NCBI RefSeq assembly: GCF_900100365.1
Contig: NZ_FNKU01000001.1
Span: 2,542,001-2,606,000 of the forward strand
Length of the DNA: 64,000 bases
Source of the DNA: Pseudomonas cannabina
GTDB lineage: Bacteria; Pseudomonadota; Gammaproteobacteria; Pseudomonadales; Pseudomonadaceae
Direction: 5' to 3'
Below, piece after piece: positions 1 through 47,496 of the stretch. Each line of letters opens with the position of its first letter. Position 1 is the first letter of the stretch. A program made the position numbers and the translations under genes. The notes under the pieces were generated by a model, which was given only the letters and a program-made list of their open reading frames with translations, was not told where the DNA came from and did no database searches.

Positions 1-35
1 GCGGGCTGCGCCACGGTTAATCAAACGAGACGGAA

Positions 36-2706: not shown

Positions 2707-2756
2707 CGCGCCCGCACTGCATCAACTGTTTCCGTTTACTGCTAGCGAGACCCGTC

Positions 2757-3635: not shown

Positions 3636-3699
3636 CGGACTTCATGCGCGCGCCTGTGATGCATGCAGGCCGCACTCACGGACACTGACGAGACCCACC

Positions 3700-5364
3700 A
3701 TGACCCGCAAAACTGAAAGCCTCGCCCGGGAAACCCTGAGGATCCTCAAGCCGTTCTGGTGGCTGGTGGCGTTGTCGACTGTGCTCGGGATCGTCAGTGG
3801 CCTCAGCGTCACCGGCCTGCTGGCCACCATCAATAATGCGCTGAACATGCCCGGCGGCCCCGATGCCTATACCGCATGGCTGTTTGCCGGGCTGTGCGTG
3901 CTGACCCTGGCCTGCTCGACGCTGTCCAACCTGTCGACCAACTACGTCGGCCAGCGCGTGGTCGCCAACCTGCGCCGCGAGCTGGCCGCCAAAGTACTGG
4001 TCGCGCCCATCGAGCAACTGGAGCGCTATCGCTCGCACCGTTTGATCCCGGTGCTGCTCAACGACGTCAACACCATCAGCACTTTCGCCCTGTCGGTCGC
4101 GCCGATGGTGATTTCGTTCACGGTCACCCTGGGCTGCCTGACCTATCTGGCGCTGTTGTCGTGGCAGATTCTGGCCCTGACCGTGCTCACCGTGGTGCTC
4201 GGCACCGGCGCGCAGTACCTGGCTCATGCGTTCGGCATGCGCAGCATTCTGGCCGCGCGTAACAGCGAAGACGAACTGCAGAAGCATTATCAGGCGCTGT
4301 CCGCTGGTGCCAAGGAACTGCGTATTCAGCGCAAACGCCGTCAGCACATGCTCGACGAAAAGATCCACGGCGCTACCGAAAACATCTGCCGCTCGAACAT
4401 TCGCGCCGCCAACATCTTTGTCAGTGCCGAAACCTTCGGCTCGATGCTGTTCTTTGCCGTGATCGGCATGGCCATCGCCTTCCAGGCCATGTGGCCGACC
4501 ACCGAGAAAACCGTGCTGGGCGGCTTCGTGTTGGTGATGCTGTACATGAAAGGACCACTGGAGCGTCTGATTACCGCCCTGCCCGGCATCAGCCGCGCGC
4601 AGATCGCCATGCGCCGCATCGCCGAACTGTCGTGGAAATTTTCCAGCCCCGAACCGCACCTGCTGGTCAGCGACCGCCCTAATTCACTGGCCAATATGCA
4701 GACCCTGGAACTGCGCAACCTGCGCTACGACTACCCGCCGGTCGAAGGCGGCGACGCGTTCCATCTCGGCCCGGTGGACCTGAGCATCAAACAGGGCGAT
4801 ATCGTGTTCATCGTCGGCGAGAACGGTTGTGGCAAGACCACGCTGATCAAGCTGCTGCTGGGCCTGTACAAGCCGCAACAGGGTGAAGTCCGCCTGAATG
4901 GCGAGGCTGTGATTCCGGAGAATCTCGACGATTATCGCCAGTTGTTCACCACGATCTTCGCCGATTACTACCTGTTCGATGAGCCGCTGCAGGGTGAGGC
5001 CGCATTGCCGCAAGACGCCGGCAAATACTTGGAGCGTCTGGACATCGCGCACAAGGTCAGCATCAAGGACGGCGCGTTTACCACCACCGACCTGTCCACC
5101 GGCCAGCGCAAGCGCCTGGCACTCATCAATGCCTGGCTGGACGAGCGTCAGGTGCTGGTCTTCGACGAGTGGGCCGCTGATCAGGACCCGGCATTCCGTC
5201 GGGTGTTCTACACCGAGCTGCTGCCGGAATTGAAGCAGCAGGGCAAGACCATCATCGTCATTTCCCACGACGACCGCTACTTCTACATCGCCGATCAACT
5301 GGTGCGCATGCAGGCGGGCCAGATTGAGGTCGAGCAAGCGCAGAGCCAAACCGCACAAGCCTGA
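3700..5364 (+). CDS. pvdE: PvdE, ABC exporter of the pyoverdine precursor
   Basis: 554 aa from the ATG at 3700 (MTRKTESLARETLRILKPFWW). The earlier in-frame start at 3595 lies inside pvdO. It is a fused half-transporter of the cyclic-peptide exporter family: about six transmembrane helices in residues 20-300, then a nucleotide-binding domain with Walker A VGENGCGKTT, signature LSTGQRKRLAL, Walker B VLVFDEWAADQDP and the H-loop ISHDDRYF. It moves the acylated precursor ferribactin across the inner membrane to PvdM, PvdN and PvdO. It is the last gene of the operon and is followed directly by a strong terminator. Confidence 0.94.
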   Translation: MTRKTESLARETLRILKPFWWLVALSTVLGIVSGLSVTGLLATINNALNMPGGPDAYTAWLFAGLCVLTLACSTLSNLSTNYVGQRVVANLRRELAAKVLVAPIEQLERYRSHRLIPVLLNDVNTISTFALSVAPMVISFTVTLGCLTYLALLSWQILALTVLTVVLGTGAQYLAHAFGMRSILAARNSEDELQKHYQALSAGAKELRIQRKRRQHMLDEKIHGATENICRSNIRAANIFVSAETFGSMLFFAVIGMAIAFQAMWPTTEKTVLGGFVLVMLYMKGPLERLITALPGISRAQIAMRRIAELSWKFSSPEPHLLVSDRPNSLANMQTLELRNLRYDYPPVEGGDAFHLGPVDLSIKQGDIVFIVGENGCGKTTLIKLLLGLYKPQQGEVRLNGEAVIPENLDDYRQLFTTIFADYYLFDEPLQGEAALPQDAGKYLERLDIAHKVSIKDGAFTTTDLSTGQRKRLALINAWLDERQVLVFDEWAADQDPAFRRVFYTELLPELKQQGKTIIVISHDDRYFYIADQLVRMQAGQIEVEQAQSQTAQA

Positions 5365-5515: not shown

Positions 5516-5667
5516 TCTCATTAACAGCGAACTGCGTGCCCAGCCATTTCCCCGCGCGGCGCTTTATAAGTTGCGCTTGCCTGCCCGGTCGACGGCTGAA
5601 CCCGACTGCGCAGGCCCGAACAACGCTCCCGATCTCCTTGCCGATACCCACTGGAAAGAGCCAATTC

Positions 5668-7899
5668 ATGCACAACCCGTCACGCCTCACCCCGCTCAGC
5701 AACGCGCTGCTGCTCCGTCAGATGTTCCGTTCCCGGCCATCCATGGCGGCCATGGGTCTTGCGTTCTGCATGCCAGTCGCCCCGCAGGCGCAGGAAGCTG
5801 CCACCGAAGGCTCGGCCACGACGGGCTCGGTCACTCTGGCGCCGACCGCGATCGATTCGCAGTACCTGGGCACGACCACCGACGGCACCGGTTCGTATAC
5901 CACCGGCGCAGTGAGTATTGGCAAGGGCGCGCCGCAGTCGCTGCGTGAAACACCGCAATCGGTGACCGTAGTGACGCGGCAGGTCATGGACGACAGCAAC
6001 CTCACCAGCCTCAGCGATGTGCTGGAAGACACGCCCGGCATCACTTTCCAGTACCGCAACTTTGGCGGTCACGTGTACACCTCGCGCGGCTTCTCGCTGC
6101 TGGCAGAAAGCTTCCTGATCGACGGCATTGGCGGTCAGGGTTATCAGATCACCGGCTGGATGCAGCCGGATATGGCCATTTATGACCGCGTGGAAGTGCT
6201 GCGCGGTGCGTCCGGCCTGCTGGTCGGCGCCGGTCAGCCTGGTGGCGCGGTCAATCTGGTGCGCAAACGCCCGACGGCCGACAACAAGTTCTCGATCACT
6301 ACCCGTGCCGGTTCCTGGGACCAGTACCGTGTCGATCTGGACGGCAGCGGCAAGCTCAACGATTCGGGCACCCTGCGCGGGCGCATGGTCGCGGCCTATG
6401 ACGACAGCGGTTCCTACCTCGACGGCCGCGACAGCCGCACCCCGCTGCTGTACGGCATCGTCGAAGCCGACGTGAGCGATGACACCACCCTGACCATGAG
6501 CCTGCGTCGTCAGGAGCAGGTCATCAACGGCTACTCGATCTACGGCCTGCCACGCTACAGCAACGGCCAGTCGCTGGGCCTGTCGCGTTCGACCAACCTG
6601 GCGCAGAAGTGGAACCGCCACGAGAGCGACATGACCGAGGCGTTCACCGAAGTCGCGCACCGCTTCAATGAAGACTGGACCAGCAAGACGTCGCTGACGT
6701 ATTCGCAGGGCGGGTTTGATCAGACGATTGCGTATGCACGCGGAGCGGTCGATCCGGCTACGTTGGCGGGATCTACTTTCCAGAGCACGCTCTTCCGCAA
6801 GGACGAAGTGAACAGCACTGGTCTCAATAGCCAGTTGGAAGGTAATTTCAACGCCTTTGGCCTGGAGCATCAGGTAACACTCGGCGCTGACTGGTCAAGA
6901 CAGGAGGCCAACTCGCATCAGGCTACTGCGCGGACCCGGTCGCCAATCAATATCTTCGACGTCAACCAGAACGCTTTCGCCAAACCTGCGCGTCCGGCCT
7001 GGACCACCGACATCGACACCACCGAAGAACGCGCGGGGCTGTACGCCAACACGCGTATTCACCTGAGCGAACCCTTGAGTGTGGTGCTGGGCACTCGTCT
7101 GAGCTGGTATGACTACAAGTACGACGTCAAGACCGGAGCGGCAACCAGTTACGAGTCCACGCAGACCCAGGAATTCACCCCGTTTGCGGGCGTTATCTAC
7201 GACATCAACGACAGCTGGTCGTGGTACGCCAGCTATGCCGATATCTTCACACCGCAGGCCAACTATGTAACCGCTGGCGGCTCGCCGCTGGACCCGGCGA
7301 TCGGCTCCAACTACGAAACCGGTTTCAAGGGTGAACTGTTCGACAAGCGCATGAACCTGTCGATGGCGCTGTTCTACATCAAGCAGAAGGATGTGGCCGG
7401 TGTCGACGTAAACACCACTCAGCTCTGCCCGACCAGCTCCGACGGCTCCTGCTACCTGCAGGACGGCATCAGCCGCAGCAAGGGTGTCGACGTCGAAGCC
7501 AGCGGCGAAGTGCTGCCGGGTCTGCAAGTGTTCGGCGGCTATACCTACAACATGCTGCGCAACAACGGTGACTCGGATGTTACCTATGAAACGCCGAAAC
7601 ACATGCTGCGCCTCAACACCAGCTACAACCTGCCGGGCGCCTGGAACCGCCTGACCCTGGGCACCGGCGTGTCGGCGGATTCGGGCTACGAAGTGCCGTC
7701 CAACAAACAGCTGGGCGTCGCCGGCAAGGCCATCTGGGATGCGCGGGCCTCGTGGAAACTGGATGAGAACTGGAAGGTGTCGCTCAACGCCGAAAACCTC
7801 TTCGACCGCAAGTACTACACCACCTCGATCGCCACCGACCGCTCCAACGTCTACGGCGAACCGCGCAGTTATGTCCTGACCTTGCGGGGTGATTTCTGA
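5668..7899 (+). CDS. TonB-dependent ferripyoverdine receptor, FpvA-type without signalling domain
   Basis: 743 aa from the ATG at 5668, which has GGAAAGAG seven bases upstream. The in-frame ATG at 5536 would add 44 residues with no signal-peptide character. The signal peptide is followed almost at once by the plug domain (about residues 75-185, with TPQSVTVVTRQVMDD and GITFQYRNFGG) and a 22-strand barrel ending in YVLTLRGDF with the typical terminal Phe. The FecA/FpvA-type N-terminal signalling (STN) domain of the neighbouring receptor is absent, so this copy should transport but not signal. Identity to the downstream receptor is high across plug and barrel, which indicates a tandem duplication. 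It has its own perfect PvdS box. Confidence 0.9.
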   Translation: MHNPSRLTPLSNALLLRQMFRSRPSMAAMGLAFCMPVAPQAQEAATEGSATTGSVTLAPTAIDSQYLGTTTDGTGSYTTGAVSIGKGAPQSLRETPQSVTVVTRQVMDDSNLTSLSDVLEDTPGITFQYRNFGGHVYTSRGFSLLAESFLIDGIGGQGYQITGWMQPDMAIYDRVEVLRGASGLLVGAGQPGGAVNLVRKRPTADNKFSITTRAGSWDQYRVDLDGSGKLNDSGTLRGRMVAAYDDSGSYLDGRDSRTPLLYGIVEADVSDDTTLTMSLRRQEQVINGYSIYGLPRYSNGQSLGLSRSTNLAQKWNRHESDMTEAFTEVAHRFNEDWTSKTSLTYSQGGFDQTIAYARGAVDPATLAGSTFQSTLFRKDEVNSTGLNSQLEGNFNAFGLEHQVTLGADWSRQEANSHQATARTRSPINIFDVNQNAFAKPARPAWTTDIDTTEERAGLYANTRIHLSEPLSVVLGTRLSWYDYKYDVKTGAATSYESTQTQEFTPFAGVIYDINDSWSWYASYADIFTPQANYVTAGGSPLDPAIGSNYETGFKGELFDKRMNLSMALFYIKQKDVAGVDVNTTQLCPTSSDGSCYLQDGISRSKGVDVEASGEVLPGLQVFGGYTYNMLRNNGDSDVTYETPKHMLRLNTSYNLPGAWNRLTLGTGVSADSGYEVPSNKQLGVAGKAIWDARASWKLDENWKVSLNAENLFDRKYYTTSIATDRSNVYGEPRSYVLTLRGDF

Positions 7900-8131: not shown

Positions 8132-10516
8132 ATGCCAACACCCTCCAACCGTCTGCGCACAGGACGCGTGAAAACGTGTGTCTTGCGTCTGGGCGGGCTG
8201 GTGCTGGCATTGGCTTTTCAGGGCGAGGCGCTGGCTGAAGAGTTCGAGTTCGACATTCCCGCACAGGCCCTGAACAGCGCCCTCAAGGAACTGGGGCGGC
8301 AAGGCGATCTGCAAATTCTTTACAACCCCGACGATGTGAGCGGCAAGCTCGGCAGTGCGGTGCACGGCAAGTTGACGCCTGAACAGGCGGTCACGGATCT
8401 GCTGGAAAAAGCCGGTGTGGCGCACAGTTTCGAGGCCAACACCCTGATTCTCGGTGCCGCCGCTTCTGCGCAGCCCATGAGCCTGGGGCCGGTGGCGATC
8501 AAAGGCGACCATTTCGGCATCACCAGCGAGGGCAGCGGTTCGTATGCGGCCACCGGAATCAGCATCAACAAGACCGCACAATCGTTGCGCGATACCGCGC
8601 AGTCGATCACCGTCGTGACCCGCCAGTTAATGAACGACAAGAACCTCACCGGTCTCGACGAGGTGATGGCGCAAACGCCAGGCATTACCTTTTCACAACG
8701 CAATTTCGGCTCTCATGTGTTCAGCTCACGCGGCTTTGCGCTGGAGGACGAGAGCTACACCATCGATGGCGTGGCCGGCTGGATGACCCCGGACATGGAA
8801 ATCTACGACCGCGTCGAAGTGCTGCGCGGCGCTGCCGGGCTGCTGATCGGTGCGGGCAACCCCGGTGGCGCAGTGAATCTGGTGCGCAAGCGGCCGACCG
8901 CAATACCGCAGCTGTCGATCACAACCCGCGCCGGGAGTTGGGACCAGTACCGTGTCGACCTGGACGGCAGCAGTAAACTCAACGAGTCGGGCAGCGTGCG
9001 CGGGCGCTTTGTAACCTCTTACGAAGACCGTGGCTCTTTCATCGACGGGCTGCAAAAAACCGCGCCGCTGCTGTACGGCATTCTGCAAACCGACCTGAGC
9101 GAAGACACCACACTGACCCTGGGCTTGCGCCATCAGAGTGCGGACATTCATGGCTTTTCGATTTTCGGCCTGCCCCGCTACAGCAACGGCAGGGCTGTCG
9201 ATCTGTCGCGTTCGACCTCGCTGGCCCAGGACTGGAATCGCCACCAGACGCGGACCGACGAAGTGTTCAGCGAGCTGGAAACGCATTTTGACGAGAACTG
9301 GAGCGGCACACTGTCGGCGACCCACTCCGAGGGCGCGTTCGACCAGAAAGTCGCCTATGCACAAGGCGCCATCGACCCTGCAACGCAGAGCGGTTCGCGA
9401 CTGGTCAAAACCCTGTTTCGCTCGGACACACTGCAAAGCGACGGTTTTGACAGCCATCTGGACGGTCGTTTCGACGCCTTCGGCCTGACCCACCAGTTAA
9501 CGGTCGGTGGCAATTGGTCCGAGCAAAATCGTGATTCGCGCTATGCCACCGTCAACGCCAATCAGCCGCTGGACATCTTCAACCCGGACCACAACGCGAT
9601 TGCCGAACCTGCGCGCCCGGCCTGGCGCAGTACCGACTACAGCGACAAGCGTTATGGCGTTTACAGCAACCTGCGCCTGAGCCTGACCGAGTCGTTGAGC
9701 CTGGTCATGGGCGGGCGAGTCAGCTGGTATGACTATCAGAGCCAGTCCGCAGGCGTGACCGCTCGCGCCCAGGAGGACAATCAGGTTACGCCGTTCGTGG
9801 GGGTGATCTACGACCTGGACCGCGACTGGTCGTGGTACGCCAGCTACACCGATATCTTTCTGCCACAGAGCGGTTATCGAACCGCATCCGGCGCGCTACT
9901 CGACCCGGCCATCGGTGCCAGCCATGAAACCGGTATCAAGGGCGAACTGTTCGACAAGCGCCTGAACGTGTCTTTTGCGCTGTTCTATGTGAAACAGAAA
10001 GACGTGGCAGTCGAGGACGAAGCCCATGCGGGGCAGTGCCTGAGCAACGACGCTTACGGCACGTGCTACCTCAATGGTGACATCCGGCGCAGCAAGGGTT
10101 TCGACATGGCAATCAGCGGTGAACCACTGCCTGGGTTACAGACCCTGGCCGGTTACACCTTCAACCTTACGCGTGGCAGCGACGGGCAATCGATTTCAGC
10201 AGAAACACCCCGGCACATGGTGCGCCTGTCCAGCAGCTACATCCTGCCCGGCAGCTGGCGTAGCCTGACTGTCGGTGGCGGTGTCTCGGCGCAAAGCGGC
10301 TACTCGGCACACGCGTCGACTCAGCCTATCGACAACCCCGGCCGCGCCATCTGGGACGCGCGGGCCTCGTGGAAAATCGACGAACACTGGTCGGTGGCGC
10401 TCAACGGCAACAACCTGCTGGATCGCAAATACTACAAGGCCACCGGCGACATCGACCGCGGCAACTACTACGGCGACCCGCGCAACTACGTCCTGACGTT
10501 GCGCGGGGATTTTTAG
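8132..10516 (+). CDS. fpvA: FpvA, ferripyoverdine TonB-dependent receptor with signalling domain
   Basis: 794 aa. Signal peptide to about residue 33 (VLRLGGLVLALAFQGEALA). A secretin/TonB short N-terminal (STN) signalling domain follows at about residues 36-107 (FDIPAQALNSALKELGRQ, then KLTPEQAVTDLLEKAGV). Then come the plug (TAQSITVVTRQLMNDKNLTG) and a barrel ending in YVLTLRGDF. The STN domain is the one that contacts an anti-sigma factor such as FpvR, so this copy is the likely signal transducer. No fpvR or fpvI is present in the window. Upstream, CAAAT (8086-8090), 17 bases, CGA (8108-8110) only loosely resembles a PvdS box, so transcription may come partly from the upstream receptor promoter. 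The start-codon context is weak. Confidence 0.93.
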   Translation: MPTPSNRLRTGRVKTCVLRLGGLVLALAFQGEALAEEFEFDIPAQALNSALKELGRQGDLQILYNPDDVSGKLGSAVHGKLTPEQAVTDLLEKAGVAHSFEANTLILGAAASAQPMSLGPVAIKGDHFGITSEGSGSYAATGISINKTAQSLRDTAQSITVVTRQLMNDKNLTGLDEVMAQTPGITFSQRNFGSHVFSSRGFALEDESYTIDGVAGWMTPDMEIYDRVEVLRGAAGLLIGAGNPGGAVNLVRKRPTAIPQLSITTRAGSWDQYRVDLDGSSKLNESGSVRGRFVTSYEDRGSFIDGLQKTAPLLYGILQTDLSEDTTLTLGLRHQSADIHGFSIFGLPRYSNGRAVDLSRSTSLAQDWNRHQTRTDEVFSELETHFDENWSGTLSATHSEGAFDQKVAYAQGAIDPATQSGSRLVKTLFRSDTLQSDGFDSHLDGRFDAFGLTHQLTVGGNWSEQNRDSRYATVNANQPLDIFNPDHNAIAEPARPAWRSTDYSDKRYGVYSNLRLSLTESLSLVMGGRVSWYDYQSQSAGVTARAQEDNQVTPFVGVIYDLDRDWSWYASYTDIFLPQSGYRTASGALLDPAIGASHETGIKGELFDKRLNVSFALFYVKQKDVAVEDEAHAGQCLSNDAYGTCYLNGDIRRSKGFDMAISGEPLPGLQTLAGYTFNLTRGSDGQSISAETPRHMVRLSSSYILPGSWRSLTVGGGVSAQSGYSAHASTQPIDNPGRAIWDARASWKIDEHWSVALNGNNLLDRKYYKATGDIDRGNYYGDPRNYVLTLRGDF

Positions 10517-10783: not shown

Positions 10784-10787
<4 letters not shown>
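10771..10787. repeat. GTGACGC dyad repeat that contains the NRPS IV stop codon
   Basis: GTGACGCTCTGCGTCAC is a perfect 7-bp dyad around a 3-bp centre. The same dyad occurs at 37552-37568, and variants lie in the repeats at 37482-37838 and 45551-45692. The stop of the NRPS gene on the minus strand (10784-10786) lies within it. Confidence 0.75.
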
Positions 10788-19408
<8,621 letters not shown>

Positions 19409-19409
19409 G

Positions 19410-19552
19410 TCAGATACCCGCCATTTCATTCATCATTTTTTCGATATCGGACAAGCCGTCCTCGGTCAGCGACAGGCCACTGCTGGCGAAGGCCTGAATA
19501 AATTCGTTCAATTGCGGTTTCTCGAAAATCAGGCGCAGCGGGATGTCGATCC
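19410..19552 (-). pseudogene. Orphaned C-terminal fragment of NRPS III (end of its last carrier domain)
   Basis: Read on the minus strand from 19552, this non-translated stretch encodes GIDIPLRLIFEKPQLNEF and continues to ...EKMMNEMAGI, ending in TGA at 19412-19410. That is the second half of a carrier domain plus the usual acidic NRPS tail; compare VSLPLRVLFEKPLLGELAAE at the end of NRPS I. It is cut off from its gene by the inserted element. Its stop lies one base before the ATG of NRPS IV (TGACATG), the arrangement expected for coupled NRPS genes. Confidence 0.88.
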
Positions 19553-19644
19553 CTAGGGAGACGCTGATTTATTCTAAAACCCAGCTGTTGCCCCCAGATA
19601 AATCAAGGCCTCCAGAGCGTTGCAGGGACGAAAAATCGAATAAA

Positions 19645-19659
<15 letters not shown>
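19553..19659. mobile_element. MITE-like insertion in the 3' end of NRPS III
   Basis: A short element without coding capacity. The ends are inverted repeats: GGAGACGCTGATTTATTC from 19557 and, reverse-complemented from the right end, GGAGGCGCTGATTTATTC. It is flanked by CTAG at 19553-19556 and 19656-19659; the shared flank extends to TCCCTAGG, so the exact duplication length is ambiguous. A further degraded copy of the end sequence lies inside (19597-19613). A CTAG target and 18-bp ends would suit a non-autonomous IS5-family relative, but the family is inferred. Removing 103 bp restores the NRPS III reading frame exactly. Confidence 0.85.
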
Positions 19660-25968
<6,309 letters not shown>

Positions 25969-25982
25969 TGGGGTCTCTCCTG

Positions 25983-28900
25983 CTAAGCGATCAAATTATC
26001 AATTTCCTCCGCTGATAAACGTTTGAGTGCCTCCAGTGATTTAGTCAATTCGTCCAGTGCATGGTCACTTTCGCCATTTTTTTCTTGCAGCGTGGCGCAG
26101 AAGTCCGCCAGCACCGGCTGCTCGAACAGGTCCTTGAGGCCGACCTCGCGCTGCAACTGCTCGCGGACCCGCACCAGCATCTGCACCGCCAGCAGCGAAT
26201 GCCCACCCAGCTCAAAGAAGTTGCCGCTGCGCCCGACTTGCCCGACCTTGAGCACGTCACTCCAGACCGCCGCCAATTGTTCTTCCAGCTCGCCTTGCGG
26301 CGCGACATAGGCCGCCTGCAACTGACCGGCATCCGGCGCTGGCAGCGCCTTGCGGTCCAGTTTGCCGTTGGCCGTCAGCGGCAGCTTGTCGAGGACGATG
26401 AAATGGGTCGGCACCATATAATCCGGCAGATGCGCCCGGAGTTCGGCTTTCAGGGTTTCACGTAGCGCTTGCTGATCCTGATCAGGCTGGGCCGGCAGCA
26501 GATACGCCGCCAGTTGACCTTCGATAGCCAGCACGACCACTTCGCGCACAGCTGGATGCGCTTGCAGCCGTGCCTCGATTTCGCCCAGTTCGATACGGAA
26601 GCCACGGATCTTCACTTGATGATCGATACGACCCGCGTATTCGATCACTCCCGCAGCTTTATAGCGGGCCAGATCCCCGGTGCGGTACAGACGACCGCCG
26701 TCGTTGGAGAACGGGTCCGGCACAAAACGCTCGGCAGTCAACGCCGCACGGTTGTGATAACCGCGCGCCAGACCGGCATGGCCGATGTGCAACTCGCCGC
26801 TGCAACCCTGAGCGACCGGGTTGAAATCCGCGTCCAGCACGTACCACGACAAATCCGGGATCGCCTCGCCAATCGGGCTGGCCGGGTTTTGCGTGTCGGC
26901 CTCGGTTATCGGGCGGTAAGTGACATGCACGGTGGTTTCGGTAATGCCGTACATGTTGATCAGTTGCGCTGCCTGATCGCCGAAACGGTCGAACCACGGC
27001 TTCAGGCTGGCCACGTCCAGCGCTTCGCCACCAAAGATGACTTTTTCCAGCGACATCGGCGCAGGCGAATCACACGCCACACGCATCAACTGCTTGAACG
27101 CCGACGGCGTCTGGTTGAGCATTGTGACGCGCTGTTCAACCAGCAGCGCATGGAAATCTTCCGGCGAACGGGTCACTTCGCGCGGCACGATCACCAGTCG
27201 GCCGCCGTGCAGCAGCGCGCCGAAAATCTCCCACACCGAGAAGTCGAAGGCGAACGAATGGAACAGCGTCCAGACGTCTTTTTCGTCGAACTTGAACCAG
27301 TTATCCGTGGCGGCAAACAGGCGCATCAGGTTGTGATGAGCCAGCAAGGTGCCTTTGGGTTTGCCGGTCGAACCCGAGGTGTAGATGACGTAGGCCAGAT
27401 TGTCTGGCGCAGTCTGGTTGATCGGGTTTTCGGTGCTGTAGCCGTCCAGCGAATCCGCCAGATCCAGCGTCTGCACGTGTGCAGGAATCGGCAACTGACC
27501 GAGCAAATGCGCCTGAGTCAGCAACAGTTCGATACCGCTGTCCTGCATCAGAAAGCTCAGGCGATCCTGCGGATAATCCGGGTCCAGCGGCACGTAAGCG
27601 CCCCCTGCTTTCAGGATCGCCAGCATCCCCACGATCATCTCCAGACTACGCTCGGCGGCGAGCCCCACGCGAACATCCGGACCGACGCACTGCTCGCACA
27701 GTTTGTGGGCCAGCTGGTTGGCGCGGCTGTTGAGCTGTTGATAGCTCAATTGCTCGGTACCGAAACTCAGGGCAATGGCCTGCGGGGTGCGTTCTGCCTG
27801 GGTTTCGATGCGTTGATGAGCGCACTGCTCGCTCGGGTAACACTGCACGCTTTGCGTCCAGCCAACTGGCAGGGCCAGTTCGCCGAGACGTGCCGTCGCG
27901 CAGGCACTGAGGCTTTGCAGCAGGTGATCGAAATGCGCTGCCAGTTGCAGAATGCCTTCGGCGCTGAAGTGTTGCCGGTCGTAACTGAAGCGTACAGACA
28001 GCACGTCGTTGGCCTCGACCACCAGGGTCAGCGGGTAATGTGCCTGTTCCTGATTGCGCAGGTCGCTGAAGGTCAGGCCCTCCGGCGCACGCTGCAAGGC
28101 GTCGGACACCGGGTAGTTTTCGAACACCAGAATGTTGTCGAACAGCGCCTCGCCACTGTTGCGCGCCCAGCGCTGGAGGTCATACAGCGGTGTGTGTTCA
28201 TGCTCGCGCAGGGCGATGTTTTTCGCCTGCACCTGCTGCACCCAGTCGCCGACGGTCTGTTCCGAACGCGGGCTGGCGATCACCGGCAGGGTGTTGATGA
28301 ACAAGCCCAGTTGCTCCTCGACGCCCGGCAATTCAGCCGGACGCCCGGCCACCGTGGCGCCAAAGGTCACGCTGGACTGGCCGGTGTAGCGTTGCAGCAG
28401 CAACAGCCAGGCCGATTGCACCAGCGTATTGAGGGTCACGTGCTGTTCGCGGGCAAACTCGCTCAAGCGGCGGGTGCCGTCGGCATCGATCAACTGGATG
28501 TAATCGCCATAGCCCTGCTGATCGGTTGATGTGTTGAAGGCTTGCAGCAAGCGGGTCGGCTCAACCAGTTCAGCCAGTTCTGCGGTCCAGAAGCGCTCGC
28601 TGAGGTCGGCGTCCTGATCCTGCAGCCACTGGATGTAATCGCGGTAACGTCCCGCCTGTTTCGTCGGCGCCTGACCGCTGTAGCGTTGCAGCACTTCACC
28701 CAGCAGCCGCGAACTGCTCCAGCCGTCCATCAGAATATGGTGGCTGGTGTAGATCAATTGCCAGCGGTCATCGTCAGTGCGCACTACCGCAAGGCGCAAC
28801 AGCGGCCCCCGCGCCAGATCGAAACCCTGCCGACGGTCGGCCTGCGCCCAGTCATCCAGCCAGCTTTGCGGCTTGCCCCGCGCCTCCAGTTCGACAAATG

Positions 28901-31900
28901 GCAGCATGACCTGACGCTGCACCACCTGCAGCGACTGCTCGCTCTGGCTGACAAAACAGCTGCGCAGCACCTCATGGTTGTCGATCGCTGATTGCCAGGC
29001 TTGCTGGAAACGCGGCACATCCAGCCCGCTGATATCCACCCGCATCTGGTTGATGTAGTTGCCCGCGCCCGCGTCGAACAGCGAGTGAAACAGCATGCCC
29101 TGCTGCATCGGCGACAGCGGGTAAATGTCTTCGATCTCACCGGCCGCAATCGGCAGCGCGTCGAGTTGCGCCTGAGTGAGATGCGCCAGCGGGAAGTCCG
29201 ATGGCGTGACGCCCTGATGCCCGGCGATGCAGTGTTCGATCAACGTGGTCAGCGCCTGCTCGTAGCGACGCGCCAGGGTGTCGATGGTCGAGGCCTGGTA
29301 CACCTCGCGACTGAAGGTCCAGTCCAGTTGCAACTGGCCGTCGAACACCTGACCGTTGAGGCTCAGCCAGTTGCCCAGCGGGCCGTCCTCGCACAGCGCA
29401 ACGCCAACGCTGTCAGCGCTTGGCACCAACAGTGCGCCTTGCTGTTCGTTGAAACTGCCGTCGAACTGGCCCAGGTAATTGAAGATGACCCGCGCCTGAG
29501 GCAGCGCGGCCAATTGCTGCGCAAACGTCGAGTCAGCCATATGGCGCAATACGCCGTAACCAATGCCTTTGTTCGGCACCGCACGCAACTGTTCCTTGAT
29601 CCCGCACAGGCTCACACCCGGCGCAATGTGCGGGGTAAGGCGGACCGGGAACAGGCTGCTGAACCAGCCTACCGTGCGGCTGAGATCAGTGTCTTCAAAC
29701 AGGTCTTCGCGGCCATGCCCTTCCAGCTGGACCAGCACCGACGGCTGCTGGCTCCACTCGCACAGCACTTGCGCCAGCGCGGTCAGCAACAGATCGTTGA
29801 CCTGCGTGCGGTAAGCGGCAGGCGCGACTTTCAGCAGTTTGTGGGTCAGGTCCTTGCTCAGCCACGACGAGGCATGGGCCGCGTCGCGATTGCGCATCGA
29901 GCCGTCAGGTTTGTCGCGTGGCAGTGGCTGATCGGCGCCCTGTAACGCGTGCAGCCAGTAATCACGCTCGGCTGTCAGCTTTTCGCCGGTCGCATACTGT
30001 TGCAATTGCTCGGCCCAGCGCTTGAGCGATGTGGTTTTTGGCGCCAGCGTCAGTGGCTGGCCGGCTGCCAGAGCGGCGTAAGCCTGTTGCAGGTCTTCCA
30101 GCAGCACCCGCCACGACACACCGTCCACCGCCAAATGATGAATCACCAACAGCAGGCGTTGCTCGCCCTGCGGCAGGTTGACCAGTACCGCACGCAATAG
30201 CGGACCGTTTTTCAGGTCAAGACTGCGTTGTGCTTCGTTAGCCAGTTCGGTCAAGCGTTCGGGGCTGTCCAGTTCGTGAACCCAGAGCACTTCGCGGGTG
30301 TTCAGCGCGCCAAAGGTAGCTTGCCACTGGCTGTTCTGCTGCGTGAAACCGAGGCGCAGCGCGTCGTGCTGATCGATCAGCGCCGTCAGTGCGGCTTGAA
30401 GATGGGCTGCATCCAGCAGTTGCAGAGGCTTGAGCATCAGCGCCTGATTCCAGTGCTGACGCTGGGGGATGTCGAGTTCGAAGAAGCGGGCCTGAATCGG
30501 CAACAGCGGTAGCGGACCGCTGACCTGTTCTGCCGCCGCAGCGGGCTTTTTCTCGATCAGTCTGGCCACCGAAGCCAGTTGGCCGATGGTCTGTTTTTCG
30601 AACAACTGCTTGGGGCTGAGCTTGATGCCCTGGCGCTTGGCGCGGGCGATGATTTGCAGGCTGAGGATCGAATCGCCGCCTAGCTCGAAGAAGTTGTCGG
30701 TGCTGCCGACCTGTTCCAGCTTGAGCACGTCGGCCCAGACGGCAGCGAGCTTTTCCTCGATCTCGCCGACCGGTGCGGTGTAGCGCTGTTTGATCACGCC
30801 CGGCTTGGGCAAGGCGCGTTTGTCGAGCTTGCCGTTGGCGGTCAGCGGCAGTTTGTCCAGCAGCAGGATCTGCGCGGGCACCATGTAGTCGGGCAAGCGC
30901 GCCGTCAGTTGCTCGCGCAGGCTGTCGACAGTCAGGCTGGCACCGGCTGCCGCCACACAATAGGCCACCAGTTGCAGGCGGGACTCGTCTTCATCGACAG
31001 GCAACGCAAGCACGCTGACCTGCGCGACAGAAGGCAGAGCCAGCAGCACCCGCGCCACTTCAGCGGGCTCGACACGATAGCCGCGCACCTTTACCTGATC
31101 GTCGGCGCGACCGATGAATTCCAGCAAGCCCTGATGATTGCGCCGCATGCGATCGCCGCTGCGGTAAACGCGGCTGCCATCCTCAGCAAACGGGTCCGGC
31201 ACGAAGCGCTCGGCGGTCAGCGCTTGCTGTCCGAGGTAGCCCAGCGCGACGCTGTCGCCGCCGATGTACAGCTCGCCTGCGACCTGAGTGGCGACAGGGT
31301 TGAGCACGTCATCCAGCACATAAGCGCTGGCCCCCGGCAACGGCGCGCCGACCGGCACCTTAGTGGATAGATATAAACCTTGTGGGAGCGAGCCGGGCGA
31401 CGCTTCGCTTGCTCGCGAAAGCGGTAGTAGAGCCTCAGCCTTTTGCAAACCTGTGCTGGCCTCTTCGCGAACAAGTTCGCTCCCACAGGAAAGGGTGTCG
31501 ACTTCAGAGCTGCAATCAGAGCATAGAGTTAAGCCAGGCACCTCATGGGTCAGCACGCCAACCGTCGTTTCGCTGGGGCCATAGTGGTTGATCACCCGGC
31601 ATACCGGCTTGAGCTGACGGACCTGCTCGACCAGCGCTGGCGGACAGGCTTCGCCGCCGACGATCAGTGCATGCTGCGGCAGCACGTCGGCGGGTTGAGC
31701 GGCTTGCAGCAGCGCAGCCAGATGACCCGGCACGATTTTCAGCACGCCGACCTGATGCTCGGCCATGTAGGCCGCAAAGGCATCCGGGTCGAAACCCAGC
31801 GATTCGGTCAGCACATGCAGCGTTCGCCCCGAACACAGCGCGCCGAACAACACGGTATGGCCGAGGTCGGCGGCGATGGTCGAGACCAGCGCCATGCTCG

Positions 31901-33956
31901 CCTCGGGGGCCAGTTGCAACTGCTCGAGCACGCCACGCACGTAACTGGCCAGCGCGCCCTGGCTGACCACTACGCCTTTGGGCTGGCCGGTGGAGCCGGA
32001 GGTGTGTATCACATAAGCCGCCGAGTCGACTGACAACTCGGTATCAGGACGGCTGATCGGCAAGTCCTGCCACAGCGCAGGCGTCCAGACCAGGCCGTGA
32101 CAACCGGCGACGTTCAGCGAAGTCGCTCGCGCATCGCCTGCGGCACACAGCAGCACCTTGGCCTGGGCATTGCTCAGCATCTGTTGCAGGCGCGCATCGG
32201 GGGCTTTGACGTCCAGCGGCATGTACACACCACCGGCCTTGAAGATCGCCAGCACCGCCGTCAGCCAGTCCAGCGAACGCTCCATCAATACCGCGACCGG
32301 CTGGCCTTCGCTGACACCCAGTCCGATCAAGTGATGGGCCAACTGATTGGCCGCCTGATCCAGTTCCCGGGTGCTCAAGGTGCGGTCCAGGCAACGGGCG
32401 GCCAGCGCATCGGGCTGGCGTTCTACCTGCAGGTTCCAGAGTTGCAGCATCTGAGGCGCGGGCTCGCGCACTTCGCGCGGCAGTTCGACCGCCAACGCGC
32501 CAAGGCTGAACAACGGCGCATCCGGCGCATTGAGCAGCGTTTTAAACATATCAAGCAGTTCAGGAATGAAGCCCTCGACGGTCGCACGTCGATACAGGTC
32601 GCTGGCGTAGGTCATGTCGCCGTGGATCAGCGTGCCTTCGTCGGTAATGTCCAGCGCCAGATCGAAATGCGCACCCTGCTTTTCAAAGGCGTATTCGCTG
32701 ACCTCCAGCCCCGCCAGCTTGAGGGCGGTTTTCTGTTTGAGAACCACGTTCTGGTTGAACTTGGCCTGGAACAACGGGTTGTGCCCCAGGTTGCGCTCCG
32801 GCGCGAGGTGATCGACCAGTTGCTCGAACGGCACGTCCTGATGCGCTTGCGCGCCGAACGAGGTGTCGCGAATCTGCGCCAGCAAATCGAGGTAGCTCAG
32901 GCGCTCGTCTATCTGGCAGCGCAGCACTTGAGTGTTGATGAAGAAACCAATCAGCCCTTCGGTTTCTGCGTGGCCACGGTTGGCGTTGGGCACGCCGATA
33001 CGGATATCGCGTTGCCCGGACTTGCGCGACAGAAACAGCGAGAAACCGGCCAGCACCAGCATGAACAGGCTCATGCCCTGAGTGCGGGCGAACGTATTGA
33101 GCTGCTGCGACAGCTCAGCGCCGAAATCGAAGCGCAGGTGCTCGCCCTGAAAGCTTTGCGTGACCGGGCGCGGGAAATCCTGCGCGGCGTCGAGCAACGG
33201 TTGTTCGTCGCCCAGTTGGCTGCGCCAGTACTCCAGCTGACGCTCGCCCTCGCCCGCTTCCAGCCAGCTGCGTTGCCAGATCGCATAATCGGCGTATTGC
33301 AGCGGCAGCTCCGGCAGCGCAGGGTCGCGACCTTCGCAATACGCCTGATAGCAGTGCACGAACTCCTGAATCATCACGTCCATTGACCAGCCATCGGAGA
33401 CGATGTGGTGCATGCTCACCACCAGCACATGCTCTTCGCTAGCGAGGCGGAACAGATGCGCGCGCAGCAGCGGGCCTTTATGCAAGTCGAAAGGCTGGCG
33501 GGTAAGCGTGGTCACTTGCAGCGCCAGCTCGGCTTCGCGCAGCTCATCGTCAGCCAGCGCGGACAGGTCAATGCTGTCCAGCGCGATGGTCTGGTCGGGC
33601 AGCAGCACTTGCAACGCCTGATCGCCATCGGTCTGGAACACCGTGCGTAATACTTCGTGGCGCTCGATCAGGTGATCGAACGCACGCCTTAGCGCTGACT
33701 CGTTCAGCGGGCCTTGCAGACGCAAACCGGTGGTCATCTTGTAGGCGTCGCTCAGCGGGTCGAGCTGCCAGAGGAACAGCAGGCGCTGCTGAGCAAACGA
33801 CAGCGGGATCGCGCTGAAATCATGACGGCTGACCGGCACCGGCAACAGGCTGAAATCCTTGCCGTCCTCGCGCAAGCGGGCGAGGAACTGTTGGCGTTGT
33901 TCCAGCGAAAGGCCGACAAAACGTTTCGCGATACGTGCAGCAGTGGTCCCGGTCAT
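25983..33956 (-). CDS. Pyoverdine side-chain NRPS II (D-Asp, Thr)
   Basis: 2657 aa. The start overlaps the NRPS I stop as ATGA. Order: C (HHIVSDGWS, about 184), A1 (A3 core about 655), T (GGDSILSLQ, about 1095), E (HHLAVDGVSWR, about 1274), C (HHILMDGWS, about 1739), A2 (A3 core about 2195), T (GGHSLLAVQ, about 2585). My reading of the A1 residues is DLTKIGHVGK (Asp) and of A2 DFWNIGMVHK (Thr). Between A5 (NHYGPSETTVG) and A6 (GELYIGG) of A1 there are about 51 more residues than in the matching domain of NRPS IV. Most of the extra is a translated REP doublet (31382-31486). The frame stays open, but whether the enzyme still folds cannot be told from sequence. Confidence 0.93.
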   Translation of the reverse strand: MTGTTAARIAKRFVGLSLEQRQQFLARLREDGKDFSLLPVPVSRHDFSAIPLSFAQQRLLFLWQLDPLSDAYKMTTGLRLQGPLNESALRRAFDHLIERHEVLRTVFQTDGDQALQVLLPDQTIALDSIDLSALADDELREAELALQVTTLTRQPFDLHKGPLLRAHLFRLASEEHVLVVSMHHIVSDGWSMDVMIQEFVHCYQAYCEGRDPALPELPLQYADYAIWQRSWLEAGEGERQLEYWRSQLGDEQPLLDAAQDFPRPVTQSFQGEHLRFDFGAELSQQLNTFARTQGMSLFMLVLAGFSLFLSRKSGQRDIRIGVPNANRGHAETEGLIGFFINTQVLRCQIDERLSYLDLLAQIRDTSFGAQAHQDVPFEQLVDHLAPERNLGHNPLFQAKFNQNVVLKQKTALKLAGLEVSEYAFEKQGAHFDLALDITDEGTLIHGDMTYASDLYRRATVEGFIPELLDMFKTLLNAPDAPLFSLGALAVELPREVREPAPQMLQLWNLQVERQPDALAARCLDRTLSTRELDQAANQLAHHLIGLGVSEGQPVAVLMERSLDWLTAVLAIFKAGGVYMPLDVKAPDARLQQMLSNAQAKVLLCAAGDARATSLNVAGCHGLVWTPALWQDLPISRPDTELSVDSAAYVIHTSGSTGQPKGVVVSQGALASYVRGVLEQLQLAPEASMALVSTIAADLGHTVLFGALCSGRTLHVLTESLGFDPDAFAAYMAEHQVGVLKIVPGHLAALLQAAQPADVLPQHALIVGGEACPPALVEQVRQLKPVCRVINHYGPSETTVGVLTHEVPGLTLCSDCSSEVDTLSCGSELVREEASTGLQKAEALLPLSRASEASPGSLPQGLYLSTKVPVGAPLPGASAYVLDDVLNPVATQVAGELYIGGDSVALGYLGQQALTAERFVPDPFAEDGSRVYRSGDRMRRNHQGLLEFIGRADDQVKVRGYRVEPAEVARVLLALPSVAQVSVLALPVDEDESRLQLVAYCVAAAGASLTVDSLREQLTARLPDYMVPAQILLLDKLPLTANGKLDKRALPKPGVIKQRYTAPVGEIEEKLAAVWADVLKLEQVGSTDNFFELGGDSILSLQIIARAKRQGIKLSPKQLFEKQTIGQLASVARLIEKKPAAAAEQVSGPLPLLPIQARFFELDIPQRQHWNQALMLKPLQLLDAAHLQAALTALIDQHDALRLGFTQQNSQWQATFGALNTREVLWVHELDSPERLTELANEAQRSLDLKNGPLLRAVLVNLPQGEQRLLLVIHHLAVDGVSWRVLLEDLQQAYAALAAGQPLTLAPKTTSLKRWAEQLQQYATGEKLTAERDYWLHALQGADQPLPRDKPDGSMRNRDAAHASSWLSKDLTHKLLKVAPAAYRTQVNDLLLTALAQVLCEWSQQPSVLVQLEGHGREDLFEDTDLSRTVGWFSSLFPVRLTPHIAPGVSLCGIKEQLRAVPNKGIGYGVLRHMADSTFAQQLAALPQARVIFNYLGQFDGSFNEQQGALLVPSADSVGVALCEDGPLGNWLSLNGQVFDGQLQLDWTFSREVYQASTIDTLARRYEQALTTLIEHCIAGHQGVTPSDFPLAHLTQAQLDALPIAAGEIEDIYPLSPMQQGMLFHSLFDAGAGNYINQMRVDISGLDVPRFQQAWQSAIDNHEVLRSCFVSQSEQSLQVVQRQVMLPFVELEARGKPQSWLDDWAQADRRQGFDLARGPLLRLAVVRTDDDRWQLIYTSHHILMDGWSSSRLLGEVLQRYSGQAPTKQAGRYRDYIQWLQDQDADLSERFWTAELAELVEPTRLLQAFNTSTDQQGYGDYIQLIDADGTRRLSEFAREQHVTLNTLVQSAWLLLLQRYTGQSSVTFGATVAGRPAELPGVEEQLGLFINTLPVIASPRSEQTVGDWVQQVQAKNIALREHEHTPLYDLQRWARNSGEALFDNILVFENYPVSDALQRAPEGLTFSDLRNQEQAHYPLTLVVEANDVLSVRFSYDRQHFSAEGILQLAAHFDHLLQSLSACATARLGELALPVGWTQSVQCYPSEQCAHQRIETQAERTPQAIALSFGTEQLSYQQLNSRANQLAHKLCEQCVGPDVRVGLAAERSLEMIVGMLAILKAGGAYVPLDPDYPQDRLSFLMQDSGIELLLTQAHLLGQLPIPAHVQTLDLADSLDGYSTENPINQTAPDNLAYVIYTSGSTGKPKGTLLAHHNLMRLFAATDNWFKFDEKDVWTLFHSFAFDFSVWEIFGALLHGGRLVIVPREVTRSPEDFHALLVEQRVTMLNQTPSAFKQLMRVACDSPAPMSLEKVIFGGEALDVASLKPWFDRFGDQAAQLINMYGITETTVHVTYRPITEADTQNPASPIGEAIPDLSWYVLDADFNPVAQGCSGELHIGHAGLARGYHNRAALTAERFVPDPFSNDGGRLYRTGDLARYKAAGVIEYAGRIDHQVKIRGFRIELGEIEARLQAHPAVREVVVLAIEGQLAAYLLPAQPDQDQQALRETLKAELRAHLPDYMVPTHFIVLDKLPLTANGKLDRKALPAPDAGQLQAAYVAPQGELEEQLAAVWSDVLKVGQVGRSGNFFELGGHSLLAVQMLVRVREQLQREVGLKDLFEQPVLADFCATLQEKNGESDHALDELTKSLEALKRLSAEEIDNLIA
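31382..31486. repeat. REP doublet inside the NRPS II coding sequence
   Basis: GTGGGAGCGAGCCGGGCGAC at 31382 and the inverted copy ending TTCGCTCCCAC at 31486. This is the same element type as at 7949, 10569 and 37850, but here it is in frame within the first adenylation domain. It encodes CGSELVREEASTGLQKAEAL and onward to SEASPGSLPQ. All four doublets have a similar length (90-105 bp). Confidence 0.9.
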
Positions 33957-36900
33957 GCGCCAAATTCCTCCAGTGAATCCATGAACTGGTCCATGTCGCT
34001 CCAGTCGTTATCCGTGGTGTTGTCGGTCAGCAGCGCCACTTCGGCGGCGAGTTCGCCCAGCAGCGGTTTTTCAAAGAGCACGCGCAGCGGCAGGCTGACG
34101 CCGAGCCGGGTCTTGATCCGCGCAATGACCTGCGCGGCGAGCAGGGAATGGCCGCCCAGCTCGAAGAAGTGATCGTCCAGCCCGACCTGCTGCGTGTGCA
34201 GAACTTCCTGCCAGATGGCGGCGAGGCAGATTTCCACCTCGCTGTGCGGCGCGCGATAACGGGCCTGCAACTGGCTTGAATCCGGCGCAGGCAACACCTT
34301 GCGGTCCAGTTTGCCGCTGGGCGTGAGTGGCAGTTCGGCCAACAGCAATAGATGTGTCGGCACCATGTAGTCCGGCAGGTTGGCTTGCAGCTGGCTCTTG
34401 ATGCGCTGGCGCAGCGCCAGTTGCTCGGCGTCGCTGTTGGCCGCGACCTGCGGCACCACGTAGGCGACCAGTTGCGCACTGCCGGCCAGCGCGACCGCCA
34501 GCACCACGGCTTCGCGCACGTCTGAGCATTGCTGCAGGCGCGATTCGATTTCGCCCAGCTCGATGCGGAAACCGCGAATCTTCACCTGATGATCGACCCG
34601 GCCAATGTATTCGATGGCGCCATCAGCGCGCAGTCGGGCGCGGTCGCCGGTGCGGTACAGACGTTCCCCGGATGCAAACGGGTCCGCCACAAAACGCTCG
34701 GCGCTCAGGCCCGGCTGGGCGTGATAACCCCGCGCCAGACCCGGCCCGCCAATATACAGCTCGCCCACCGCGCCCTGCGGCAGCAGGTTCAGTTGGTCGT
34801 CCAGCACGTACAAACGACGCCCCGCCAGGCCTTTGCCGATCGGCACGCCGCGCCACGACACCTGCTCCGGGGTCAGCGCGCTGCAATCGTGGATGCTCGA
34901 CACCACCGTGGCTTCGGTCGGCCCGTAGGTGTTGAGCAGGCGCACCTGCCCGAGACCGGCCTGCCGCCACAAGCGCAGGCCTTCGACGGCCATCGCCTCG
35001 CCGCCGACGTGAATCTGCCGCAGCGCGCCGTAATGCGCAGGCGGGCTGGCCGCGAAATCCTGAACCAGGGTCAGCCAGTAGGCCGCAGGCAGGTCCGCCA
35101 GGGTCACGCCATGCTCGATGATGGCGTGGTGAAAGGTGGCGCTGTCCCACAAACGTTCATCACGCAGCACCACGGCCGCGCCACGGCACAGCGGTGGGTA
35201 GAACTGCTCGACGAAGCCGTCGAAACTTTGTGTGGCAAATTGCAGCACCCGATCGCCTTCGCGCAGGTCGCTGTAGTCCGCGCCCAGGGTGACGAACTCG
35301 GCCAGTGCGCCATGGCCGATCGCCACGCCTTTAGGCCGGCCGGTCGAGCCCGAGGTGTAGATCACGTAGGCCAGATTGGCCGGATCGATATCGACAACCG
35401 GGTTTTCTGCGCTGGCTGCTTCGCTGTTCATCTGATCGATGCACAGGCACTGAATGCCAGCCAGTTCAGGCAGCGTCGGCCACTGTTCGCTGTGGGTCAG
35501 CAGCAGTTTCAGGCCGCTGTCTTGCAGTACATGGCGCAAACGGTCGCTCGGCGCGCTGAGGTCCAGCGGCACGTAGGCACCGCCTGCCTTGAGCACGGCC
35601 AATAGCGCAACGGGCATGTCGAGCGAACGGCCCAGCGCCAAGCCAACCAGCACGTCCGGGCCGACACCCTGCTCGCGCAGTTGCCAGGCCAGGCGGTTGC
35701 TGCGCTCGTTCAGTTCGCAATAGGTCAGGCGAGGCGACAGGCCTTCACCGGCGAGGATCAGCGCCAGTGCGCCCGGCGTGCGCTGCACTTGCGCCTCAAA
35801 CTGGCGATGCGCGGGGGTGGTGGTGTCGGCCTTGACGGCGCTGTCGACATCCAGCAATTGCGTGCGCTCGTCGGCCGACAGCATCGACAGCTCGGCGATG
35901 GTTTGCAGCGGGTCAGCGCAGACCGACGTCAGCAGGTTGCGCCAGTGCGCGGCCAAACGAGCGATGGTCGGCTGGTCGAAAATGTCGGTGGCGTAAGTAA
36001 AGGCGGCGTTCAGCTGTTCGCCTTCACCGCTGGTAGCGAGCATCAGGTCGCTGGCAGCGGCGTGCGAGCGCTGGGCCAGTGCTTGTTGCTCGGCGGGCAG
36101 ATTGGCCACGCGCAGGCCGCCGCTCAGCTGTTTATCCAGCAAGTCGGCCACCACCGGTTGGTGATTGAACATTACCTGGAACAGCGGATTGTGGCTTTGG
36201 CTACGCTCGGGCTGCAGGGCGTCGATGATGGCGTCGAATGGCAGTTCCTGATGCGCCTGGGCACCGGTCGAGGCATCGCGCACGGTGTGCAGCAGATCGA
36301 CAAAGCGCGTCTGCGCCGTGACCTCGCTGCGCAGCACCTGGGTGTTGATGAAGCAGCCGATCAGGCCTTCGGTGTCACTGCGCGTGCGGTTGGCGATCAA
36401 GCCGCCGACGCGAATGTCGGTCTGCCCGCTGTAGCGATGCAGCAGGCTTTTGAAGGTCGCCAGCAGCACCACGAACAGGGTCACGCCCTGCCGTTGCGCG
36501 AGGGCTTTCAGGCTGCGCAGCAGCTCGGGCTCCAGCGCCAGCTCCAGGCGCGCGCCTTCATGGCTGGGCAACGCCGGGTACGGGCGGTCGGTAGGCAGCT
36601 CGAGTACCGGATGCTCTTCGCCCAGGTGCTTGCGCCAGTAATCCAACTGGCGCTCCTGTTCGCCAGCCTCCAGCCAGCTGCGTTGCCAGACGGCGTAGTC
36701 GCGATACTGCACCAGCAACGGCTGGAAGGGCAGCGGCTTGCCGGCCAAAAGTGCGTCGTAACCGCGCAGCCATTCGTCGATCAGCACGTTCATTGACCAG
36801 CCGTCGGTGATCATGTGGTGCAGGTTGAGCAGCAGCAGGTGTTCCTGCTCGGCGAGGCGCAATACCTGCACGGTAAACAGTGGCCCGCGCTGCAAATCGA

Positions 36901-45976: not shown

Positions 45977-46000
45977 ACGTATCGCTACGTCGAAAAATTA
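45977..46000 (-). promoter_or_regulatory. PvdS-type promoter of the MbtH-like gene
   Basis: On the minus strand, TAATT (46000-45996), 16 bases, CGT (45979-45977), continuing TCAATC, about 60 bases before the ATG. The TAA stop of pvdH lies within the TAATT element. Confidence 0.75.
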
Positions 46001-47410: not shown

Positions 47411-47496
47411 TTGTGCAGCCCTCAATACGCTGGTTGAATGACCTGATGCATGACCAAGGGCCATGCCGGTTCAGGCGTTTATTCCTTCTCTTGAAA

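What the first reader, a model, noticed from the sequence alone, without database searches (positions are those of the whole stretch)
19553..19659. A MITE-like element truncates the last carrier domain of NRPS III
The sequence shows an approximately 99-bp element with 18-bp inverted ends flanked by CTAG, inside the final carrier domain. The frame now ends IHTGLGRR-stop. Deleting 103 bp (19557-19659, one flank copy included) rejoins IHTGL to GIDIPLRLIFEKPQLNEF and the acidic tail up to a stop one base before NRPS IV. The lost part is the second half of the carrier fold, so loading of the Ser residue should fail. I infer that the strain may be pyoverdine-deficient or make a stalled product.
Basis: partly seen in the sequence, partly recalled or inferred. 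Interest (0 to 1): 0.86.

Follow-up and report, generated by a model that had tools for sequence, protein, structure and literature searches.

The report
Mobile DNA scrap breaks siderophore synthetase
A 99-letter mobile DNA element, present in about 250 very similar copies in this Pseudomonas, has jumped into the gene for one of the enzymes that build its iron-scavenging pigment and cut off the enzyme's end, so the strain has probably lost the pigment.

Summary
CTAG (19553-19556), a 99-bp element (19557-19655) with 18-bp inverted ends (one mismatch) and a second CTAG (19656-19659) interrupt the last carrier domain of pyoverdine synthetase III. Eight of eight aligned relatives lack the insert. 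The frame here loses its last 46 residues and gains two; the Pfam carrier match covers positions 3-46 of 67, against 2-66 in three relatives.

The element behaves like a true MITE. The genome has 254 hits to its left end. Of 115 copies examined (a biased sample), 98 have identical 4-bp flanks and 111 have YTAR on both sides. Its likely motor is a 1,209-bp IS5-family element (about 94 matches) whose outer 10-11 bp match the MITE's ends. Of 398 Pseudomonas genomes, only this one and one other (two hits) carry it; 48 Pseudomonas plasmid records also do.

Deleting the orthologous gene in P. syringae 1448A abolishes pyoverdine (PMC3207962, passages), so loss is likely but untested here. Both receptor frames and the other four synthetase frames are open, and three achromobactin-type synthetases are present: a non-producer genotype. 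Gene inactivation by MITEs is known; this burst is the notable part.

The parts
19553..19556 (.). left copy of the 4-bp target repeat (CTAG)
   Evidence: sequence; 98 of 115 examined copies have identical 4-bp flanks
19557..19655 (.). 99-bp MITE
   Evidence: 254 left-end hits in the own genome; 42 of 42 listed full-length matches 100% identical (where 40 of 248 candidates were scored)
19557..19574 (+). left terminal inverted repeat, 18 bp
19638..19655 (-). right terminal inverted repeat, 18 bp, one mismatch to the left one
19656..19659 (.). right copy of the 4-bp target repeat (CTAG)
   Evidence: sequence
19645..25968 (-). interrupted pyoverdine side-chain synthetase III: C-A-T-C-A and a half T domain, 2107 aa
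   Evidence: ORF; Pfam; PF00550 3-46 of 67 against 2-66 of 67 in three relatives
19410..19556 (-). orphaned 3' end of synthetase III (second half of carrier domain and tail), now out of frame behind the element
   Evidence: read against the relatives
10784..19408 (-). synthetase IV, two modules and thioesterase, open (frame from 19429)
25983..33956 (-). synthetase II, two modules with a third condensation-type domain, open
33953..37363 (-). synthetase I, one module, open
47574..60584 (-). chromophore synthetase (PvdL-type by size, position and the 1448A layout), 4336 aa, open
   Evidence: NF004282 over 1-4335
45998..47464 (-). diaminobutyrate-2-oxoglutarate transaminase (PvdH; gene name recalled)
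   Evidence: NF005393 over cut-off
5536..7899 (+). first TonB-dependent siderophore receptor, open
   Evidence: TIGR01783 over cut-off, full model length
8132..10516 (+). second TonB-dependent siderophore receptor, open
   Evidence: TIGR01783 over cut-off, full model length
1330..2706 (+). PvdN, pyoverdine-tailoring periplasmic protein
   Evidence: NF051467 over cut-off
3595..5364 (+). cyclic-peptide export ABC transporter (PvdE; gene name recalled)
   Evidence: TIGR01194 over cut-off

Best explanation
A MITE, moved in trans by a resident IS5-family transposase (inferred), inserted into a CTAG target inside the last carrier domain of pyoverdine synthetase III and duplicated the 4 bp (shown by the empty site and the target repeats). 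The net gain of 103 bp shifts the frame and brings a stop inside the element, so the enzyme loses the second half of its last thiolation domain and its C-terminal tail (shown). The last module then cannot hold or hand on the growing peptide, the assembly line stops before synthetase IV and the strain makes no functional pyoverdine (inferred). It keeps open receptor genes and three achromobactin-type synthetase genes, so it can probably still obtain iron (inferred). The insertion is one of about 250 similar copies, many identical, and is therefore probably recent.
For: Empty site in 8 of 8 aligned relatives (also the paired hit blocks). Truncated PF00550 match, 3-46 of 67 against 2-66 of 67 in three relatives. 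254 left-end hits, control 0. YTAR flanks on both sides in 111 of 115 copies and identical flanks in 98 of 115. IS5-family element with the same outer ends and the same A/G difference, about 94 matches. Cluster identity from PvdN, exporter, transaminase, receptors and synthetase layout. Ortholog deletion abolishes pyoverdine in 1448A (PMC3207962, passages). Achromobactin-type synthetases: three, open.
Against: No phenotype data for this strain. The cofactor serine of the truncated domain is kept. In P. aeruginosa some crippled synthetases still released a truncated product (PMC4535683, passages), so a stalled peptide, not silence, is possible. Only one genome of this species was examined, so fixation is unknown. 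No transposition was shown. Not every accessory pvd gene was checked.
Confidence: 0.85

Rival explanations
1. The insert is real, but the shortened enzyme still works in part: the half carrier domain, or a carrier domain elsewhere, hands the peptide on, giving reduced or variant pyoverdine or a released truncated peptide.
For: The cofactor serine is kept. Some crippled synthetases of P. aeruginosa still released a truncated product (PMC4535683, passages).
Against: A third of the Pfam domain is missing, as is the tail towards synthetase IV. Deletion of the orthologous gene abolished pyoverdine in 1448A (PMC3207962), though that was a whole-gene deletion.
Confidence: 0.1
2. The interruption is an assembly artefact or a variant of only part of the sequenced population.
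For: Repeats of 99 bp with about 250 copies can mislead assembly; no reads were available.
Against: Exact CTAG repeats at both ends and clean flanks that match relatives without rearrangement are what a real insertion leaves.
Confidence: 0.03
3. The repeat is kept for a function of its own, such as an RNA hairpin or regulatory palindrome, and is not a transposable element.
For: As RNA it folds strongly: -48.6 kcal/mol, z -5.96 against 200 shuffles, because the ends pair.
Against: No Rfam match, no promoter- or terminator-like site, flanking repeats that change with the target and ends that match a resident IS.
Confidence: 0.02

Closest known systems
MITEPsy1 of P. syringae pv. phaseolicola (Bardaji et al. 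2011, PMC3189936; passages seen)
   Same: About 100 bp, 18-bp inverted ends, 4-bp target repeat (CTAG or YTAA), linked to an IS5-family element (ISPsy2), frame-shifting insertions that change or break genes; shown there to transpose.
   Different: End sequence differs (GGAAGGTCTGAAAAAGCC in the paper's table); 6 copies in 1448A against about 250 here; a different likely partner.
MITEPsy3 of P. syringae pv. actinidiae biovar 3 (PMC6053426; passages seen)
   Same: Short P. syringae-group MITE in many copies (78) with gene-breaking insertions.
   Different: 102 bp; its authors suggest ISPsy25 (IS630) as mover. Its sequence was not compared here, so a relation is open.
IS5-family element of this genome, 1,209 bp
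   Same: Outer 10 and 11 bp of the two ends match the MITE's, with the same A/G difference; YTAR-type flanks.
   Different: Carries a transposase gene; the inner sequence is different.
[quoted passage not shown]
   Same: Insertion element linked to loss of a biosynthetic cluster in natural strains.
   Different: Other phylum and product; the paper itself was not seen.
Pspph1925 knockout of strain 1448A (PMC3207962; abstract and passages seen)
   Same: Same synthetase lost; no pyoverdine; achromobactin as fallback.
   Different: Laboratory whole-gene deletion, not a natural insertion.

Membership tests
MITE (bacterial) | Short element with terminal inverted repeats, too short for a transposase | tested here: met
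   99 bp, 18-bp ends with one mismatch
MITE (bacterial) | Target-site duplication | tested here: met
   identical 4-bp flanks in 98 of 115 copies, YTAR on both sides in 111 of 115; 45 of 50 and 50 of 50 in a smaller set
MITE (bacterial) | Many similar copies at unrelated places | tested here: met
   254 hits; 259 with a shorter pattern
MITE (bacterial) | Ends shared with an autonomous IS in the cell | tested here: met
   outer 10-11 bp shared with the 1,209-bp IS5-family element
MITE (bacterial) | Moved in trans by that transposase | not testable with these tools
   needs a trap assay
MITEPsy1 | End sequence of MITEPsy1 | tested here: not met
   ends differ
MITEPsy3 | Sequence of MITEPsy3 | not tested
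   record not fetched; sizes differ, 99 against 102 bp
Pyoverdine side-chain synthetase (Pspph1925 type) | Third of four contiguous side-chain synthetases, two modules without epimerisation | tested here: met
   domain counts and order, compared with the layout in PMC3207962
Pyoverdine side-chain synthetase (Pspph1925 type) | Second module activates Ser | not tested
   taken from PMC3207962 for the ortholog
Pyoverdine side-chain synthetase (Pspph1925 type) | Complete last carrier domain | tested here: not met
   PF00550 3-46 of 67 against 2-66 of 67 in three relatives; hence an interrupted copy of the gene

The most novel reading that the evidence does not exclude
This genome is in the middle of a live MITE outburst, driven by about 94 copies of one IS5-family element, that is remodelling the gene content of a P. 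syringae-group strain. It has made the strain a natural pyoverdine cheater: synthesis broken by one recent insertion, both receptor genes and a secondary siderophore cluster kept. The target was opened by a silent Leu-codon change that created a CTAG.
Probability: 0.45. Interest if true: 0.55.

Novelty: new member of a known kind. Interest (0 to 1): 0.42.

Why it matters
Pyoverdine is the main siderophore of the fluorescent pseudomonads; a single and apparently recent lesion makes this strain a natural test of life without it. The MITE has about 250 copies here, against 6 for MITEPsy1 in strain 1448A and 78 for MITEPsy3, although other bacterial repeats reach more (711 ERIC copies in Photorhabdus, PMC10969869). 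With its likely 94-copy partner in the same cell it is a good system for asking how non-autonomous elements burst, which targets they take and which genes they break.

Tried and rejected
MITEPsy1 as identity: rejected on end sequence. The ISPsy2-like element (340-aa frame, ends beginning GGAAACTCTGAAAAAG) as partner: rejected, because its ends resemble those of MITEPsy1 and not of this element. Element carrying its own CTAG: considered because relatives have CAAG or CCAG at the empty site; rejected because flanks vary as CTAG, TTAG, TTAA and CTAA. RNA family, promoter or terminator: nothing found. Phage origin: no match in the phage collection. Yersiniabactin as second siderophore: two matches to the salicylate synthase model, neither over its cut-off. 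My first consensus of the IS5 loci mixed strands and was useless; it was redone with orientation. A codon-usage test of whether MITEs lie in genes was trained on window genes and called 61 of 66 copies non-coding on both sides and 375 of 436 unoccupied sites of the same loci likewise; it scored the window's own insertion as coding on one side only. I judged it biased against AT-richer DNA and report the open-frame test instead.

Biases: L001-L030 are top-scoring copies (40 of 248 candidates scored), L031 is the window's own place, and L142-L201 were chosen from the 100 places listed, all of them with zero mismatches to a pattern that includes one flanking G. The shares of identical copies and of TAG targets are therefore inflated.

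Full report
What is there. The window carries CTAG (19553-19556), a 99-bp element (19557-19655) and CTAG again (19656-19659). The arms around it are 23 nt and 96% complementary; the element's own ends are GGAGACGCTGATTTATTC and, on the other strand, GGAGGCGCTGATTTATTC. On the minus strand the third side-chain synthetase of the pyoverdine cluster reads ...FFELGGHSLLATQLIARIHTGLGRR and stops inside the element.

Empty site. I searched 57 genomes and 398 Pseudomonas genomes, own genome included in both, with 700 bp around the site. In many of the nearest relatives there are two hit blocks (query about 1-257 and 353-700) that overlap by 6-8 bp in the record, which is the picture of an empty site; the closest, G347, is 97% and 93% identical in the two blocks. 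The window itself is not named; I place it in the P. syringae group from these relatives. An alignment of the window with eight relatives shows continuous sequence in 8 of 8. Their target reads CAAG (2) or CCAG (6) where the window has CTAG; in the coding direction this is the third base of a Leu codon (CTT, CTG, CTA), so a silent change probably gave this lineage its YTAR target before the insertion (inference).

Effect on the protein. Four relatives translated at the same place (L088, L092, L094, L095) continue GLGIDIPLRLIFEKPQLNEF... to MNEMAGI-stop, 46 residues beyond the point where the window's frame goes on with RR-stop. Pfam PF00550 matches positions 3-46 of 67 here (40.3 bits) and 2-66 of 67 in three relatives (57.9 to 61.4 bits). 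The cofactor serine is kept; the second half of the domain and the tail towards synthetase IV are lost. The whole frame is 2107 aa, against 2154 aa in Pseudomonas sp. KUIN-1 (L094).

Identity of the cluster. The window encodes PvdN, a cyclic-peptide ABC exporter, a diaminobutyrate transaminase and two TonB-dependent siderophore receptors, a 4336-aa chromophore-type synthetase and four contiguous synthetases with 1, 2, 2 and 2 modules, the last with a thioesterase. Six of ten proteins were named; four had no match. This is the layout of strain 1448A, where the modules were assigned Lys, D-Asp, Thr, Thr, Ser, D-Asp, Ser, deletion of any of the five synthetase genes abolished pyoverdine, the mutants made achromobactin, and neither siderophore was required for disease in bean (PMC3207962, abstract and passages). 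Three IucA/IucC-type synthetases, the kind used for achromobactin, are present with open frames; no match to the salicylate synthase of the yersiniabactin type passes its cut-off. The other four synthetase frames and both receptor frames are open. Not every accessory gene of the cluster was checked. Keeping receptors without making pyoverdine would fit the cheater type studied in natural Pseudomonas communities (PMC5583256; only the start of the abstract in the listing).

The element. A 30-mer of its left end has 254 hits in the 6.39-Mb genome (122 forward, 132 reverse), the reversed control none; a 25-mer has 259. Among 57 genomes only the own one has the 30-mer; among 398 Pseudomonas genomes 2 have the 25-mer, this one and G347 with two hits. 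It also lies on 48 plasmid records, all Pseudomonas, best places 80-100% identical, 47 of them covering at least 80% of the query. In 91 loci I found 115 distinct copies: 94 identical to the window's copy, 98 with identical 4-bp flanks, 111 with YTAR on both sides (selection biased as told in Tried and rejected). YTAR occurs 59 times in the 64-kb window, CTAG 11 times, the insert's own flanks included.

The motor. PF05598 has 141 matches in the genome. By my count of the listing, 88 score 68.8 bits and 6 score 65.5 bits, and I take these 94 as one type; most have a 338-aa open frame, some are shorter and one has an internal stop. Aligning 17 of these loci gives a 1,209-bp element with flanks of the form NTAg and ends GGAGGCGCTG... 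and GGAGACGCTGA.... Outer 10 and 11 bp are those of the MITE, including the A/G difference between the two ends. Identical elements annotated as IS5 family lie on P. syringae-group plasmids: 11 of the 12 listed records are 100% identical, of 55 with a match. That this transposase moves the MITE is inferred. No further match to the MITE ends at up to 3 mismatches, apart from MITE copies, was seen in the 30 transposase loci examined.

Where copies go. Of 66 copies with no other element end within 240 bp, 19 lie where a frame is open for 240 bp on both sides in the same phase; unoccupied YTAR sites of the same loci give 157 of 436 and window YTAR sites 27 of 54. With 180 bp the MITE figure is 24 of 68, with 120 bp 37 of 73. 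Another 45 copies were set aside at 240 bp because an element end was near. Copies are thus not strongly depleted in open frames relative to nearby sites, but they sit in DNA of lower GC (mean 51.4% in 500-bp flanks, against 62.3% for the window). The insertion in the GC-rich pyoverdine cluster is not typical of the sample. 23 of 115 copies abut another element end across a shared 4-bp target. How many genes are broken was not determined.

Comparison with known elements. It works like MITEPsy1 (PMC3189936, passages) but has different ends and a different likely partner, so it is not MITEPsy1. MITEPsy3 (102 bp, 78 copies; PMC6053426, passages) was not compared by sequence. I found no paper that joins a MITE to pyoverdine loss: the search for 'pyoverdine', 'miniature inverted-repeat' and 'pseudomonas' listed two papers, which I did not read; the searches listed none whose title or abstract start says so. 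Most subscription journals are not in that library.

Verdict. Observation confirmed, interpretation supported; the phenotype stays an inference with support from the ortholog's knockout. Insertional inactivation by a MITE is a known kind of event; the copy number and the resident partner make the element itself the more interesting part.

Noticed in passing
own genome, C1 and smaller contigs: Heavy transposase load: 141 matches to PF05598, among them about 94 of the IS5-family type with the MITE's ends, 10 of an ISPsy2-like type and 35 with a 494-aa open frame of another type.
   Followed up: partly
own genome C1:518219 and 519432; 3285661 and 3286874; 4628495 and 4629708: Pairs of the IS5-family element lie exactly 1,213 bp apart (1,209 + 4), as if tandem copies shared one 4-bp target; 23 of 115 MITE copies abut another element end in the same way.
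   Followed up: partly
L004, L007, L008, L012: Several MITE copies lie directly at the end sequence of ISPsy19 (GAGGGTGTAGA as given in PMC3189936), which seems to create a YTAR target at its border.
   Followed up: no
window 1-64000: CTAG is rare here (11 in 64 kb, against 375 GATC), which limits the element's best targets.
   Followed up: no
plasmid hits H54-H56: Three Pseudomonas plasmids carry a 100% identical match (94% of the query) at a gene annotated as a CesT-family type III secretion chaperone.
   Followed up: no
own genome C1:1733566-1741359: Three IucA/IucC-type siderophore synthetases with open frames (602, 624 and 637 aa), probably an achromobactin cluster.
   Followed up: partly
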